Part shown: piece by piece, positions 1-4,743 of the stretch
Numbering within the stretch: position 1 is the stretch's first letter
Layout: the number at the start of each line of letters is the position of its first letter
From: Streptomyces griseochromogenes
Lineage (GTDB): Bacteria > Actinomycetota > Actinomycetes > Streptomycetales > Streptomycetaceae
DNA length: 64,000 nt
Direction: 5' to 3'
Assembly: GCF_001542625.1 (NCBI RefSeq)
Contig: NZ_CP016279.1
Location: forward strand, 372,001-436,000
The notes under the pieces: generated by a model
What the model saw: only the letters and a program-made list of their open reading frames with translations
Databases searched by the model: none
What the model was told of the DNA's origin: nothing
Made by a program: the position numbers and the translations under genes

Positions 1-694
1 GACCCGGGTGGCGCAGCTCCAGGGCGACCTGCCGGTCGTCCTGTATGGGGATGAAGGCGACGGACTCGTCACAGATGATGAGACGTTCGACCAGTTCGTC
101 GATGGTCCGGTACTCCGCCTTGCCGTTGGCGAACTGGTCCACGTAGGCGAGCCGTTCGGGGCTGTATCTGGCGGTGTGCTGGTACAGGGTCCGGATGCGG
201 ACGCCTCGCTCGATCAACGGCTTGTCGCGTTCGAGGGCTTCGACGAGTCTGCGTTCGGGATGGCGGTGGCTGGGCTGGACCGTGAGGACCTCGTTCTGGC
301 ACTGGGCCGTGGCCAGGTCGAGTGCCGTGTTGATCCGGTCGAGCCCCTCCAGCACGGTGACCGAGTGGGTGGACGCCGTAGCCTGGGCGCTGAGGTCCAG
401 GAACGGCTCGAACACCTCGGCAAGTTTGGTTGACACCGTCCTGCGTTCGGTGATTTCACGCTCAAGGGGGTTGAGCCGCTGGGCGAGGGCCACCGACGCG
501 GGGACCGGGCGCAGCCAGTTCGCATCGTCAGGATCCGGATGGAGAAGCGCGAACTCCATCAGACAGGGAGCAACTTCCACATCCGCGCGGGCGATGCGTC
601 CCGTACGCAGTGCGTTCGCGTAGAGACGGCTGCCTGCCTCGCACAGATCCGTCAAGGCATGGGGATGTGTCTCTTTAGTGCGATTCGTTACCAA
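1..694 (-). CDS. LuxR/TrmB-type transcriptional regulator, C-terminus outside window
   Basis: The frame stays open from a TTG start at 694 (GGTGGAG six bases upstream) to the window edge, giving 231 residues of a longer protein. The visible part resembles the sensor region of Streptomyces regulators that join a TrmB/phospholipase-D-like region to a C-terminal LuxR helix-turn-helix: an N-terminal helical part, a linker around residues 90-105 with ITERRTVSTKLAEVF, then VLEGLDRINTALD, YQHTARYSPERLAYVDQF and VERLIICDESVAFIPI. The DNA-binding domain would lie beyond base 1, so the class is inferred from family resemblance. It is divergent from the DTAWS peptide gene, 113 bp away, and is the likely regulator of that pair. 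Confidence 0.7.
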   Translation of the reverse strand, partial: MVTNRTKETHPHALTDLCEAGSRLYANALRTGRIARADVEVAPCLMEFALLHPDPDDANWLRPVPASVALAQRLNPLEREITERRTVSTKLAEVFEPFLDLSAQATASTHSVTVLEGLDRINTALDLATAQCQNEVLTVQPSHRHPERRLVEALERDKPLIERGVRIRTLYQHTARYSPERLAYVDQFANGKAEYRTIDELVERLIICDESVAFIPIQDDRQVALELRHPG

Positions 695-715
695 ATCTCC
701 ACCCCCCAGGGTCCT

Positions 716-732
716 GAACATGCAGGAACATG
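716..732. promoter_or_regulatory. GAACATG direct repeat in divergent promoter region
   Basis: GAACATG occurs at 716-722 and again at 726-732, a period of 10 bp that puts both copies on the same helix face. It lies between the divergent regulator (start 694) and peptide gene (start 808), so it is a plausible operator. This is inference from position only. Confidence 0.35.
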
Positions 733-807
733 ATGCACTGATTGTGTGGCCATGACGTGCCCGAATGAGCCATCGTCTTGTTCGACGGGGGAAGAGGGGA
801 CTTTCAA

Positions 808-1017
808 GTGAGGACGAAGCCGACTATGCGAAAGAGAATGCTTCGCTCGATACTTGTCGCCGCCTTCTCCGCCGTTGTGGCCTTCGGATCGCTGAGTGGC
901 CTCTCTGGCGCGAAGGGTGACGCTCGAGCGGACACCGCTTGGTCTGTCATGGCCGGCACGCGCCAGGTGGGCGCGAGCGCCGCTGCCGCCTTCCCGACCG
1001 ACACCGCGTGGAGTTGA
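808..1017 (+). CDS. Small secreted peptide with two DTAWS motifs
   Basis: A 69-residue protein from a GTG start with GGGGA about seven bases upstream; an ATG at 826 is the alternative. Residues 7-38 look like a Sec signal: basic RKRMLR, a hydrophobic stretch around residues 14-34, then small residues. The mature part is only about 30 residues and begins and ends with the same pentapeptide, DTAWS at 42-46 and at 65-69, the second being the exact C-terminus. I do not recognise a named family. A secreted peptide signal or a modified-peptide precursor is possible. It is followed one base later by the Rieske-like gene and is divergent from a large regulator. Confidence 0.65.
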   Translation: MRTKPTMRKRMLRSILVAAFSAVVAFGSLSGLSGAKGDARADTAWSVMAGTRQVGASAAAAFPTDTAWS

Positions 1018-1018
1018 T

Positions 1019-1354
1019 GTGACGACTCCACCCGACGACCGCTCCTTCCGACGCGAGATGGCCACCGCCTACCGCTCGGGCTGGCACTTCATCGACCTGG
1101 TCACCGCCATCCCCCACAGCGGCGACTCGTTGATGGTGACGGTGTTCGGCGAGCCGGTCGTCGTCACCCGGGACGACGAAGAGGACGTGCGCGCGTACCG
1201 GTGCCTGCGCAAGCCTCGCGGTGCGCCACAGCCGGTGCGATGTGCCATCCGCTACGGCATGATCTTTGTGAACCTGGACCAACGCGACCATCGGTTGGCA
1301 GAACCGGACGATTCAGACCTTAGGGCTGTCTCTGCCACCCCCCGCAGTGCCTGA
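1019..1354 (+). CDS. Small Rieske-like protein with missing cluster ligands
   Basis: A 111-residue protein. Its GTG start lies one base after the peptide gene's TGA, implying translational coupling. The order of motifs copies the N-terminal Rieske region of ring-hydroxylating oxygenase alpha subunits: SGWHFI, VTVFGEPVVVTRDDEEDVRAY, CLRKPRGA where the family has C-x-H-R-G-A, then VRCAIRYGMIFVNLD, which recalls the second ligand pair fused to the GFIFVNLDP strand. The Cys/His pairs of a [2Fe-2S] site are not intact: one Cys survives in each half but the histidines are absent, and the spacing is short. It is therefore either a degenerate remnant or a Rieske fold used without iron-sulphur. No catalytic domain follows. 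Confidence 0.5.
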   Translation: MTTPPDDRSFRREMATAYRSGWHFIDLVTAIPHSGDSLMVTVFGEPVVVTRDDEEDVRAYRCLRKPRGAPQPVRCAIRYGMIFVNLDQRDHRLAEPDDSDLRAVSATPRSA

Positions 1355-1397
1355 CGCGATTCCCCCGTCGTAAAAGATCGCTCAGGTGCTTCCCCCC

Positions 1398-1438
1398 GCA
1401 GCGGCGTCACCGTGACCTGAACACGGTGACGCCGCTGC
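1398..1438 (+). terminator. Strong hairpin terminator after the Rieske-like gene
   Basis: A perfect 17-bp inverted repeat (1398-1414 with 1422-1438) around a 7-base loop, 44 bp after the stop at 1354. There is no long T-run, which is usual for actinobacterial terminators. Confidence 0.8.
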
Positions 1439-1462
1439 AGTTTGTGGCGACATTTCGATGTA

Positions 1463-1476
1463 TGGGAGCGCTTTCA
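1463..1476. promoter_or_regulatory. LacI-family (CebR-like) operator-like sequence
   Basis: TGGGAGCGCTTTCA matches 12 of 14 positions of the CebR box TGGGAGCGCTCCCA known from Streptomyces cellulose-sugar regulons. It lies between two gene 3' ends with no promoter-proximal gene nearby, so its function is doubtful. Confidence 0.3.
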
Positions 1477-1477
1477 C

Positions 1478-1538
1478 GGTGGCTGAAACCAACCGGTTGA
1501 CCTCTTCTTGAGGGTGGCTGAAACCAACCGGTTGACCT
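1478..1538. repeat. Two 26-bp direct repeats each with a 10-bp palindrome
   Basis: The same 26 bases occur at 1478-1503 and 1513-1538, a period of 35 bp. Each copy contains the perfect palindrome CAACCGGTTG. The layout resembles paired regulator operators but lies between convergent genes; it may be left over from a lost gene. Confidence 0.6.
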
Positions 1539-1545
1539 GCTCGTC

Positions 1546-2004
1546 TCAGCCGCGCCCCAGAGCGCGCTCCACCTCGATCTCGATCACCACCCGTGAGGGG
1601 TTCTCGCCGGGCACGCGTCCGTACCGCTCGGCATAGCGCCGCTCCGCCTCCGCGACCCTTCCCCGCTCTCGGCTCCGCTCGTGCGGGGGGACGCCCATCG
1701 CCTCGCCCCGCACCCGCGCCCGGCCCTCCAGCGTGGCCCAGCGCCGGCCGTCCACCTGGCACACCGCGACCCGTGCGCCCTCGGGTCCGGCCGCGAGGAC
1801 GTGGGACACCTTCGCGCTGGTCCTGTTGGTGATCACCCTCGCCAGTCGCGCCTCGGGGTCGTACGTCACCCCGACCGGCACCACGTGCGGGCTGCCGTCG
1901 GGGCGCAGGGTGGTCAGCGTGCACAGGTGCCGCTCCCGCCAGAAGGCGAGGTACGGCTCGTCCGGGGCGACCGGGTCCACGGAGTACGAGGTCATGGCAG
2001 TCAT
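1546..2004 (-). CDS. PPOX-class flavin/F420-dependent oxidoreductase
   Basis: About 152 residues from ATG 2004, with ATG 1995 as alternative. It is a single split-barrel domain of the pyridoxamine-5'-phosphate-oxidase-like superfamily. The N-terminal LAFWRERHLCTLTTLRP and DGSPHVVPVGVTYDPE strands and the RVITNRTSAKVSHVLA cofactor-binding region are typical of the small actinobacterial F420-dependent group. Substrate is unknown, and FMN rather than F420 cannot be excluded. It is divergent from clpB across a 141-bp gap. Confidence 0.75.
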   Translation of the reverse strand: MTAMTSYSVDPVAPDEPYLAFWRERHLCTLTTLRPDGSPHVVPVGVTYDPEARLARVITNRTSAKVSHVLAAGPEGARVAVCQVDGRRWATLEGRARVRGEAMGVPPHERSRERGRVAEAERRYAERYGRVPGENPSRVVIEIEVERALGRG

Positions 2005-2041
2005 GGGCCGCAACCTAGCCCCAGAATCCTCCGGAGCCAGC

Positions 2042-2062
2042 CTTGAGTGGAATAGACTCAAC
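2042..2062. promoter_or_regulatory. HAIR element (HspR operator) upstream of clpB
   Basis: CTTGAGT-N7-ACTCAAC matches the HspR-associated inverted repeat CTTGAGT-N7-ACTCAAG except for its last base. It lies 83 bp before the clpB start. In Streptomyces, HspR with DnaK as co-repressor controls the dnaK operon, clpB and lon through this element. Confidence 0.9.
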
Positions 2063-2145
2063 TTTGTGTACGCTGGTTAAGTCAGCAATGGGAGACATGG
2101 GAGAGACACGGCCGACGGGCCGACGTCGAGGAGGAGAGCGCGAAC

Positions 2146-4743
2146 GTGGACGCCGAGCTGACCAACAGGAGCCGGGAAGCGATCAATGCGGCCAGTAGCC
2201 GTGCCGTGACCGGGGGGCATCCCGACCTCACCCCCGCCCACCTGCTGCTCGCGCTGCTCGCGGGGCAGGAGAACGAGAACATCACCGATCTGCTGGCGGC
2301 CGTGGAGGCCGACCAGGCCGCCGTACGATCGGGCGCCGAGCGGGTGCTGGCCGGGCTGCCCAGCGTGACCGGCTCCACCGTGGCGCCCCCGCAGCCCAAC
2401 CGCGAGCTGCTCGCCGTGCTCGCCGACGCGAACGAACGGGCGAAGGCCCTCGGTGACGAGTACCTGTCCACCGAACACCTGCTGACCGGCATCGCCGCGA
2501 AGGGCGGCGCGGCCGGTGAGGTGCTCCGCAAGCAGGGCGCCGACGCGAAGAAGCTCCAGGAGGCCTTCCGGAAGGCCAGGGGAGGGCGCCGTGTGACCAC
2601 CGCCGACCCCGAGGGCCAGTACAAGGCCCTGGAGAAGTTCGGTACCGACTTCACCGCCGCCGCCCGCGAGGGCCGCCTGGACCCCGTGATCGGGCGGGAC
2701 CAGGAGATCCGGCGGGTCGTCCAGGTCCTCTCCCGCCGTACGAAGAACAACCCGGTCCTCATCGGTGAGCCCGGCGTCGGCAAGACCGCCGTCGTCGAAG
2801 GGCTCGCCCAGCGGATCGTGAAGGGCGACGTGCCCGAGTCCCTGAAGGACAAGCGGCTCGTCTCGCTCGACCTCGGCGCGATGGTGGCCGGCGCCAAGTA
2901 CCGCGGCGAGTTCGAGGAGCGGCTGAAGTCCGTGCTCGCCGAGATCAAGGACTCCGACGGGCAGATCATCACCTTCATCGACGAGCTGCACACCGTCGTG
3001 GGCGCGGGCGCCGGCGGGGACTCCGCCATGGACGCCGGCAACATGCTCAAGCCGATGCTGGCCCGCGGCGAGCTGCGCATGGTCGGCGCGACCACCCTGG
3101 ACGAGTACCGGGAGCGGATCGAGAAGGACCCCGCCCTGGAGCGCCGCTTCCAGCAGGTGCTGGTCGCCGAGCCGACCGTCGAGGACACCATCGCCATCCT
3201 GCGCGGACTCAAGGGCCGCTACGAGGCCCACCACAAGGTGCAGATCGCGGACAGCGCGCTGGTCGCGGCCGCGACCCTCTCCGACCGCTACATCACCTCC
3301 CGCTTCCTGCCCGACAAGGCCATCGACCTGGTCGACGAGGCGGCCTCCCGCCTCCGCATGGAGATCGACTCCTCGCCCGTCGAGATCGACGAACTCCAGC
3401 GCTCCGTCGACCGGTTGAAGATGGAGGAGCTGGCGATCGCCAAGGAGACCGACCCGGCCTCCGTCGAACGCCTGGACAAGCTGCGCCGCGACCTCGCCGA
3501 CAAGGAGGAGGAGCTGCGGGGCCTGACCGCCCGCTGGGAGAAGGAGAAGCAGTCCCTCAACCGGGTCGGCGAGCTGAAGGAGAAGCTGGACGAGCTGCGC
3601 GGTACGGCCGAACGCGCCCAGCGCGACGGCGACTTCGACACCGCGGCCAAGCTGCTCTACGGCGAGATCCCGCAGCTGGAGAAGGAGCTGGAGGCCGCCT
3701 CCGAGGCCGAGGAGGAGGTCGCCAAGGACACCATGGTCAAGGACGAGGTGGGCTCCGACGACATCGCCGACGTCGTCGCCGCCTGGACCGGCATCCCCGC
3801 CGGGCGCCTCCTGGAGGGCGAGACGCAGAAGCTGCTGCGCATGGAGGATGAGCTCGGCAAGCGGCTCATCGGGCAGGGCGAGGCCGTACGGGCGGTGAGC
3901 GATGCCGTACGGCGGTCGCGTGCCGGGATCGCCGACCCCGACCGGCCCACCGGCTCCTTCCTCTTCCTCGGCCCGACGGGCGTCGGCAAGACCGAACTCG
4001 CCAAGGCGCTCGCCGACTTCCTCTTCGACGACGAGCGGGCCATGGTCCGCATCGACATGTCGGAGTACAGCGAGAAGCACAGCGTGGCCCGGCTGGTCGG
4101 CGCGCCTCCCGGCTACGTCGGCTACGAGGAGGGCGGACAGCTCACCGAGGCGGTGCGGCGGCGCCCGTACAGCGTGGTGCTGCTGGACGAGGTGGAGAAG
4201 GCCCACCCCGAGGTCTTCGACATCCTGCTCCAGGTGCTGGACGACGGACGCCTGACGGACGGCCAGGGACGCACGGTCGACTTCCGCAACACCATCCTGG
4301 TGCTCACCTCCAACCTGGGCAGCCAGTACCTGGTGGAGCCGCTGACCAGCGAGCACGAGAAGAAGGAGCAGGTCCTGGAGGTGGTCCGGGCCTCCTTCAA
4401 GCCCGAGTTCCTCAACCGGCTCGACGACCTGGTGGTCTTCTCGGCGCTGGCCAAGGACGAGCTGGCCCGGATCGCCCAGCTCCAGATCGACCGGCTCGCC
4501 AGGCGGCTGGCCGAACGCCGGCTCACCCTGGAGATCACGCCCGAGGCGCTGACCTGGCTCGCCGACGAGGGCAACGACCCGGCCTACGGCGCCCGCCCGC
4601 TGCGCCGCCTGGTGCAGACCGCCATCGGCGACCGCCTCGCCAAGGAGATCCTCTCCGGCGAGATCAAGGACGGCGACACGGTCCGGGTGGACCGCTTCGG
4701 CGAGGGCCTGATCGTGGGCCCGGCGACCGGGAAGACACTGTGA
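2146..4743 (+). CDS. clpB: ATP-dependent chaperone ClpB
   Basis: A cytoplasmic AAA+ disaggregase of 865 residues, the usual length, that threads aggregated proteins through its hexamer pore with DnaK/DnaJ/GrpE. The N-terminal Clp repeat domain covers about residues 1-150. NBD1 has Walker A GEPGVGKT at 207-214 and Walker B FIDELH with D279/E280. The M-domain coiled coil, rich in E/K/L, runs about 400-530. NBD2 has Walker A GPTGVGKT at 609-616, Walker B LLDEVEKA with D681/E682, and TSNLGS. The GTG start has GAGGAGGAG upstream. The HAIR element at 2042-2062 indicates heat induction by release of HspR. No residues are missing. Confidence 0.98.

What the first reader, a model, noticed from the sequence alone, without database searches (positions are those of the whole stretch)
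1..1354. Divergent regulator, secreted DTAWS peptide and Rieske-like protein as one unit
A large TrmB/PLD-like LuxR-type regulator faces a tiny secreted peptide gene coupled one base upstream to a small Rieske-like gene. The set looks like a peptide-signalling or peptide-modification cassette that I cannot place in a known class. The right boundary is a very strong terminator.
Basis: partly seen in the sequence, partly recalled or inferred. Interest (0 to 1): 0.75.

Follow-up and report, generated by a model that had tools for sequence, protein, structure and literature searches.

The report
Streptomyces peptide signal with matching receptor
Next to a heat-shock gene, most Streptomyces carry a tiny secreted-type protein built from copies of a species-specific four-residue word (aspartate-x-x-tryptophan) beside a DNA-binding protein in which one residue changes in step with that word, which points to a private peptide language in the main antibiotic-producing bacteria.

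Summary
The regulator is cut by the window edge; it is 345 aa in the genome, with four paralogs between hspR and clpB. The 69-aa peptide and Rieske-like genes are a one-base-spaced pair. The set is found together in most Streptomyces.
Relatives explain the peptide. Precursors carry 1-10 copies of [D/E/N]-x-x-W. Copies within a precursor share x-x (98 of 104 multi-copy precursors; shuffle mean 5.4) with synonymous codon drift, while species differ. Regulator residue 145 tracks core residue 2: Ser-Met 63/63, Thr-Val 28/28, Pro-Leu 13/13. Ser/Thr changes at least 15 times on the tree, always with Met/Val; no other regulator column exceeds 30%. The second regulator shows no such link. Direct recognition of the peptide by the divergent TrmB/PLD-fold LuxR regulator is strongly suggested.
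Other members of the regulator family, also in other genera, can sit beside small secreted W-motif peptides. In S. coelicolor two members (SCO3664, SCO2686) are reported actinorhodin down-modulators.
The 'Rieske' protein lacks both His ligands, so it is not a Rieske enzyme. Secretion, processing and import are inferred. Best reading: a new peptide-signalling class, Phr/RRNPP-like in logic, unrelated in parts.

The parts
2..721 (-). Divergent regulator ('ref1'), N-terminal two thirds; continues beyond base 1 (full ORF L009:9684-10721, 345 aa). TrmB/PLD-like sensor plus C-terminal LuxR HTH
   Evidence: residue 145 covaries with peptide position 2
712..732 (+). Palindromic operator-like site TCCTG-N6-CAGGAACATG in the divergent promoter region
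   Evidence: CAGGAACATGATGC in 59 of 59 loci, TCCTGN6CAGGAACATGATGC in 52 of 59; only exact match in the genome. Function inferred
808..1017 (+). Secreted-type signal precursor, 69 aa (GTG start)
931..945 (+). First core DTAWS, directly after the putative signal-peptidase site ARA
   Evidence: sequence; codons differ from copy 2 (gct/gcg, tct/agt)
1000..1014 (+). Second core DTAWS, C-terminal
1019..1354 (+). Degenerate Rieske-like protein, 111 aa, one base behind the precursor; both His ligands missing; ATPRSA tail
1398..1438 (.). Strong inverted repeat, possible terminator without a T tract
   Evidence: self-hit; none by scan

Best explanation
A peptide-signalling locus. The precursor is exported by Sec and cut to short [D/E/N]xxW peptides (here DTAW or DTAWS); these accumulate outside and are re-imported by an oligopeptide permease. 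The peptide is then bound in the TrmB/PLD-like sensor domain of the divergently encoded LuxR-type regulator, where residue 145 reads peptide position 2, and this changes binding at the conserved palindrome between the two genes. Shown here: gene arrangement, conservation, core identity rules, site-specific covariation, predicted fold. From the literature: disruption of the S. coelicolor ortholog SCO3664 and of the family member SCO2686 raises actinorhodin. Inferred: secretion, processing, import, binding, operator use. The Rieske-like protein is an accessory non-redox partner of unknown role, seen only in the clpB locus; I guess an intracellular binding or buffering protein.
For: 125 distinct precursors carry 360 cores; 104 have two or more; x-x identical in 98 of 104 (shuffle mean 5.4, max 13 in 1000 shuffles); 531/541 pairs within against 4969/56750 between precursors; codon differences 169 synonymous vs 6 not at position 2, 274 vs 6 at position 3, but 103 vs 250 at position 5. 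Residue 145 of the regulator: Ser-Met 63/63, Thr-Val 28/28, Pro-Leu 13/13 of 123 loci. Among 91 Ser/Thr loci it explains all of the entropy, next column 30%; 15 Ser/Thr changes on the tree, 15 at residue 145, 15 jointly. Same test in 59 long loci: ref1 residue 145 1.0 (Ser-Met 32/32, Thr-Val 17/17), next ref1 column 0.38; best column of ref0 0.31 (49 loci), PPOX 0.40 (38), Rieske-like 0.24 (49), solute-binding protein 0.71 (44). ref0 has V at this place in 50 of 51. Core similarity tracks the sensor (partial r 0.43, 0 of 200 permutations) and not the HTH (-0.04). Regulator model pLDDT 87.7, matches TrmBL2/TrmB and PLD-fold proteins. Family members elsewhere sit beside secreted W-peptides. ACT phenotypes: PMC6585502 passages.
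Against: No experiment shows secretion, maturation, import or binding. Clade signal is strong: over all core types the Rieske-like protein has as high a mean association with position 2 (0.256) as ref1 (0.248), and one near-invariant column of it reaches 1.0; only the Ser/Thr subset separates them. Residue 94 of the solute-binding protein also follows Ser/Thr partly (0.71; 1 of 200 permutations as high), so ref1 may not be the only reader. Over all 123 tips position 2 changes 24 times, residue 145 19 times, both together 25, so the link is looser for aliphatic cores. Position 3 associates with residues 190/154, but the residue-190 class changes only once on the tree. ref0 and the tandem paralogs do not covary; their ligands are unknown. 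In one search one of 48 loci mismatched (L088) because the script took a wrong ORF; corrected. Under strict criteria only 42 of 98 family regulators have a candidate secreted neighbour, 16 with the motif (shuffle mean 4.8, max 10). The palindrome shows no genome-wide regulon (58 sites at up to 2 mismatches against 54 for the control).
Confidence: 0.78

Rival explanations
1. Cell-autonomous sensor: the regulator reads unexported precursor (or its fragments) inside the producing cell, reporting secretion or protein-folding stress; no extracellular signal. The place between dnaK-hspR and clpB would fit.
For: The same covariation would arise; the locus lies between heat-shock genes; a DNA-binding regulator must be cytosolic.
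Against: Species-specific diversification of the core while W stays fixed is typical of private signals, not of a stress gauge (inference); family pairs occur elsewhere in genomes and in other genera.
Confidence: 0.13
2. Multi-core RiPP natural product: the cores are modified, by the Rieske-like protein or another enzyme, and act as a metabolite; the regulator is its pathway regulator.
For: Multi-core precursor and an adjacent small protein with a Rieske-like fold; a PNPOx-family gene lies convergent before clpB.
Against: His ligands missing in all 59 loci and in the 118 of 120 database homologs that parsed, with Cys losses too; Sec-type leader; the PNPOx gene shows no Ser/Thr link above 0.40; family pairs elsewhere have no Rieske-like gene.
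Confidence: 0.06
3. Secreted antimicrobial or toxin with the Rieske-like protein as immunity.
For: Small secreted-type product coupled to a conserved small protein.
Against: A four-residue conserved unit in up to 10 copies and covariation with a transcription factor do not fit; the Rieske-like protein barely varies while cores vary.
Confidence: 0.02
4. The covariation is an artefact of shared ancestry or joint transfer of neighbouring genes.
For: Many columns carry clade signal, in the Rieske-like protein too.
Against: 15 concerted Ser/Thr changes confined to one ref1 column (1.0 against 0.30 for the next); ref0, PPOX and Rieske-like stay at or below 0.40.
Confidence: 0.01

Closest known systems
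RRNPP systems (Rap-Phr, PlcR-PapR, NprR, Rgg) of Bacillota
   Same: Small propeptide gene beside its cytosolic regulator gene; very short mature peptide, often near the C-terminus (mature-peptide details recalled)
   Different: Receptor is a TrmB/PLD-fold LuxR protein, not a TPR protein; actinomycete host; tandem identical cores; no sequence relation found
TrmB / TrmBL2 sugar-responsive regulators
   Same: Closest solved structures by Foldseek (5bpd E 1e-13, 3qph), though whole-chain TM-scores are low (0.3-0.4)
   Different: C-terminal LuxR HTH added; ligand predicted to be a peptide
Rieske oxygenase N-terminal domain (GbcA, naphthalene dioxygenase)
   Same: Weak sequence and fold similarity
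   Different: No intact [2Fe-2S] ligand set, no catalytic domain, 111 aa
Gamma-butyrolactone signalling of Streptomyces (recalled)
   Same: Intercellular control of antibiotic production
   Different: Enzyme-made small molecule and TetR-type receptors

Membership tests
RRNPP quorum sensing | Receptor of 250-500 aa with tetratricopeptide repeats (criteria read in PMC10075063 passages) | tested here: not met
   Length fits (345 aa); fold is TrmB/PLD plus LuxR HTH; no TPR family among hits
RRNPP quorum sensing | Propeptide and receptor genes directly adjacent | tested here: met
   Divergent ref1 next to the peptide/Rieske pair in 59 of 59 parsed loci, and in L104
RRNPP quorum sensing | Mature peptide imported and bound by the cytosolic receptor | not testable with these tools
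   Covariation is indirect evidence only
Rieske [2Fe-2S] protein | Two Cys and two His cluster ligands (C-x-H ... C-x-x-H; consensus recalled, seen in L208) | tested here: not met
   The places read C-x-R and C-x-x-R in 59 of 59 loci and in 118 of 120 listed homologs that parsed; first Cys is Leu in L102 and L120
Rieske [2Fe-2S] protein | Rieske fold | tested here: inconclusive
   Model pLDDT 70; Foldseek best E 2.7e-3, nearly all of the 50 listed hits are Rieske oxygenases; Pfam below cut-off
RiPP cluster | Precursor with a modification enzyme | tested here: inconclusive
   The Rieske-like protein lacks its ligands; the next gene is a convergent PNPOx-family ORF, whose role was not tested
TrmB-LuxR regulator family | TrmB/PLD-like sensor and C-terminal GerE/LuxR HTH | tested here: met
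   GerE weak for ref1, above cut-off for ref0 and ref3; alignment and model; profile found in 121 of 246 class genomes, 45 of 103 genera

The most novel reading that the evidence does not exclude
The actinomycete TrmB/PLD-LuxR regulators as a whole are a peptide-receptor family, each with a private short W-containing secreted peptide ([D/E/N]xxW in the clpB locus; DTSWG, SNIWF, TSVWD, NYWE, NTWPG and others elsewhere). This is a phylum-wide peptide language, partly controlling antibiotic production, whose specificity can switch by one residue on each side (Ser/Thr against Met/Val).
Probability: 0.5. Interest if true: 0.95.

Novelty: new variant of a known kind. Interest (0 to 1): 0.88.

Why it matters
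Signals of this phylum are described as typically enzyme-made small molecules, with propeptide signals assigned to Bacillota (PMC10075063 introduction passage). A genus-wide peptide signal with a readable recognition code would give Streptomyces a new communication layer, a cheap handle on antibiotic production through synthetic 4-5-residue peptides, and a ligand class for a large orphan regulator family. It is directly testable in model strains.

Tried and rejected
Peptide modification by a Rieske enzyme: rejected on ligand loss. Regulon by the palindrome: not seen. Residues 190/154 as readers of position 3: mostly one ancestral change, not claimed. Mean-association comparison over all cores: not decisive, since the Rieske-like protein scores as high as ref1 and ref0 is missing from the Pro/aliphatic clades; replaced by the Ser/Thr test. 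Rieske-like gene outside Streptomyces: matches in 1 of 8 genera of the order sample. Paper searches for a description of this system gave none; bioRxiv and most subscription papers are not in that library, so absence in print is not shown. Dropped or misread rows: L208 (ordinary Rieske oxygenase) and L209 had no peptide; for L204 the script took a wrong ORF and counted no core, although DPAWD is there; L088 was misread and is right. Many of the 170 loci overlap (same genome fetched in different ways); they reduce to 126 distinct precursors. Regulators for the family survey were the best matches, not a random draw.

Full report
WHAT IS THERE. The window starts inside a cluster that lies between dnaK-grpE-dnaJ-hspR (plus a Peripla_BP_4 solute-binding protein) and clpB of a 10.76 Mb Streptomyces genome (heat-shock names recalled from the sequences). 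The divergent side has the 69-aa precursor (808-1017) and, one base later, the 111-aa Rieske-like gene (1019-1354). A strong hairpin follows at about 1398-1438, without a T tract, then a convergent PNPOx-family gene (1546-2061).

CONSERVATION. The precursor is matched in 236 of 295 and the Rieske-like protein in 256 of 295 Streptomyces genomes (at least one weak match in the second count is an ordinary Rieske oxygenase). In an order-level sample the Rieske-like protein occurred in 182 of 245 genomes and 1 of 8 genera. In 28 genomes (20 of the 39 without a Rieske match, 8 with weak ones) the best ref1 match was at most 43% identical. Of 60 long loci, 59 were parsed by script and L104 separately; ref1 is divergent from the peptide/Rieske pair in all (in five of the 59 the peptide was read). 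ref0 was recovered in 51 of 59, and 0-4 extra paralogs lie between. About 100 bp of the divergent promoter region are highly conserved, including TCCTG-N6-CAGGAACATGATGC: exact in 52 of 59, the right half in 59 of 59.

THE PRECURSOR IS A CORE REPEAT. In relatives the mature part carries 1-10 copies of [D/E/N]-x-x-W. From 170 loci, 168 gave a precursor ORF; these are 126 distinct sequences, 125 with at least one core, 360 cores in all. There are 33 pure core classes and 6 mixed ones, for example DTAW, DTVW, DSAW, DTQW, DSIW, DSVW, DSSW, DSTW, DSGW, DVGW, DLSW, DIAW, DPGW, EPSW, EPTW and NTSW. In 98 of 104 multi-copy precursors all copies share positions 2-3 (shuffle mean 5.4, max 13). Codon differences between copies are synonymous at positions 2 and 3 (169 vs 6; 274 vs 6) but not at position 5 (103 vs 250). 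Selection therefore keeps a four-residue word. In 48 of 125 precursors the last core ends the protein, one residue after W; in 109 it ends within 10 residues of the end. In a diverged clade a single C-terminal DPAWD or DPTWG remains. In the window the two DTAWS copies use different Ala and Ser codons.

THE REGULATOR READS THE WORD. Across 123 loci, ref1 residue 145 (V of EVLTVQP in the sensor; residue 123 of the model, in strand 122-127) is Met for Ser at core position 2 (63/63), Val for Thr (28/28) and Leu for Pro (13/13); with Ile, Leu or Val it is V, I or L, and the single Arg has V. Among the 91 Ser/Thr loci it explains all of the entropy, the next column 30%; the ref1 tree built without that column needs 15 changes for either state and 15 for both together. 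Over all 123 tips the numbers are 24, 19 and 25. A tree from ref0, solute-binding protein, PPOX and Rieske-like needs 13 and 12 changes in 48 Ser/Thr tips, with one mismatch (L088) that is a parsing error; with cores read correctly the 49 long Ser/Thr loci are 32/32 and 17/17.

CONTROLS. In the Ser/Thr test the best column explains 0.31 in ref0 (49 loci), 0.40 in PPOX (38), 0.24 in the Rieske-like protein (49) and 0.71 in the solute-binding protein (44), against 1.0 for ref1 residue 145 and 0.38 for the next ref1 column. The 0.71 column (residue 94, eleven states) is reached by 1 of 200 permutations of the maximum; I note it as a lead that the lipoprotein may also see the peptide. Over all core types deep clades dominate: the mean association with position 2 is 0.248 for ref1 but 0.256 for the Rieske-like protein, so that comparison decides nothing. 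ref0 has Val at the matching place in 50 of 51, and tandem paralogs show no rule. Position 3 associates with residues 190 and 154, but the residue-190 class changes only once on the tree, so I do not count it. The core tracks the sensor beyond the HTH (partial r 0.43 against -0.04). The regulator model (pLDDT 87.7, pTM 0.62) matches TrmB-type and PLD-fold structures, with low whole-chain TM-scores.

A WIDER FAMILY. The regulator profile matches 121 of 246 genomes of the class, 45 of 103 genera. Neighbourhoods of 98 distinct members (best matches, not a random draw): 42 have a strict-criteria secreted small ORF, 16 with [D/N/E]xxW against a shuffle mean of 4.8 (max 10 in 500); of 35 control places in the own genome 3 had candidates and none the motif. 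Cases picked by eye include ...AHADTSWGY......AQADTAWE...DTAWE, four GNTWPG repeats...DDTGWD...SNIWF...TSVWD, and in the window's own genome ...DQDIRWD. No Rieske-like gene was found in the 97 loci (tblastn).

FUNCTION FROM THE LITERATURE. The locus of a S. coelicolor relative (L104, genome G246; its Rieske-like protein is P0127, named S. violaceoruber, on a contig of the same length) has LuxR-family genes of 394 and 327 aa next to ref1. These are the lengths of SCO3666 and SCO3665 (PMC3282765, Table 1 passage), so SCO3664 is ref1 (inference). Its precursor ends in a single DTIWS. Insertions in SCO3664 raised actinorhodin more than 50-fold (PMC6585502, passages). SCO2686 is listed there as another down-modulator; the paper's SCO2686 primers match L346 exactly, where the regulator is divergent from a small secreted-type ORF ending in ...DDSQWG, followed by a GTP cyclohydrolase II gene. 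That paper restored 12 of 16 tested regulator mutants by complementation; which ones is in its Fig. 2, not seen.

THE RIESKE-LIKE PROTEIN. Nearly invariant, but the His places read Arg in all 59 aligned loci and in the 118 of 120 listed homologs that parsed; a Cys is lost in 16 of those 118. The fold is weakly Rieske-like. It cannot hold a Rieske cluster of the known kind. The ATPRSA tail after a variable linker suggests a binding role (inference).

VERDICT. Most likely a peptide-signalling system with a new receptor class; it works like RRNPP systems but is not a member (no TPR receptor). Export, processing, import and operator use remain to be shown.

Noticed in passing
L009:3923-5041 (+): Orphan Peripla_BP_4 solute-binding protein between hspR and ref0; its residue 94 (eleven states) partly follows core position 2 (0.71 of Ser/Thr entropy; 1 of 200 permutations), which may mean it also meets the peptide.
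   Followed up: partly
L215:775-1005 (-) and 1342-2355 (+); G000:C1 near 300.8 kb: Second regulator/peptide pair in the window's own genome, peptide ending DQDIRWD.
   Followed up: partly
L346:1090-1251 (-), 443-1099 (-): SCO2686-type pair: secreted-type ORF ending DDSQWG followed by a GTP cyclohydrolase II gene, again an enzyme-like partner behind the peptide.
   Followed up: partly
L293, L294, L296-L300, L305: Non-Streptomyces actinomycetes: W-peptides (DSSWG, DTSWG, DTGWP, DTAWE x2, GNTWPG x4) convergent with the regulator rather than divergent.
   Followed up: partly
G394 and G457, G218: Rieske-like gene apparently frameshifted or with a stop in the match in a few genomes.
   Followed up: no
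window 1478-1503 and 1513-1538: Direct repeat GGTGGCTGAAACCAACCGGTTGACCT downstream of the hairpin.
   Followed up: no
L209 (G023:C1:93194-93475): Second diverged Rieske-like copy without a recognised peptide.
   Followed up: no
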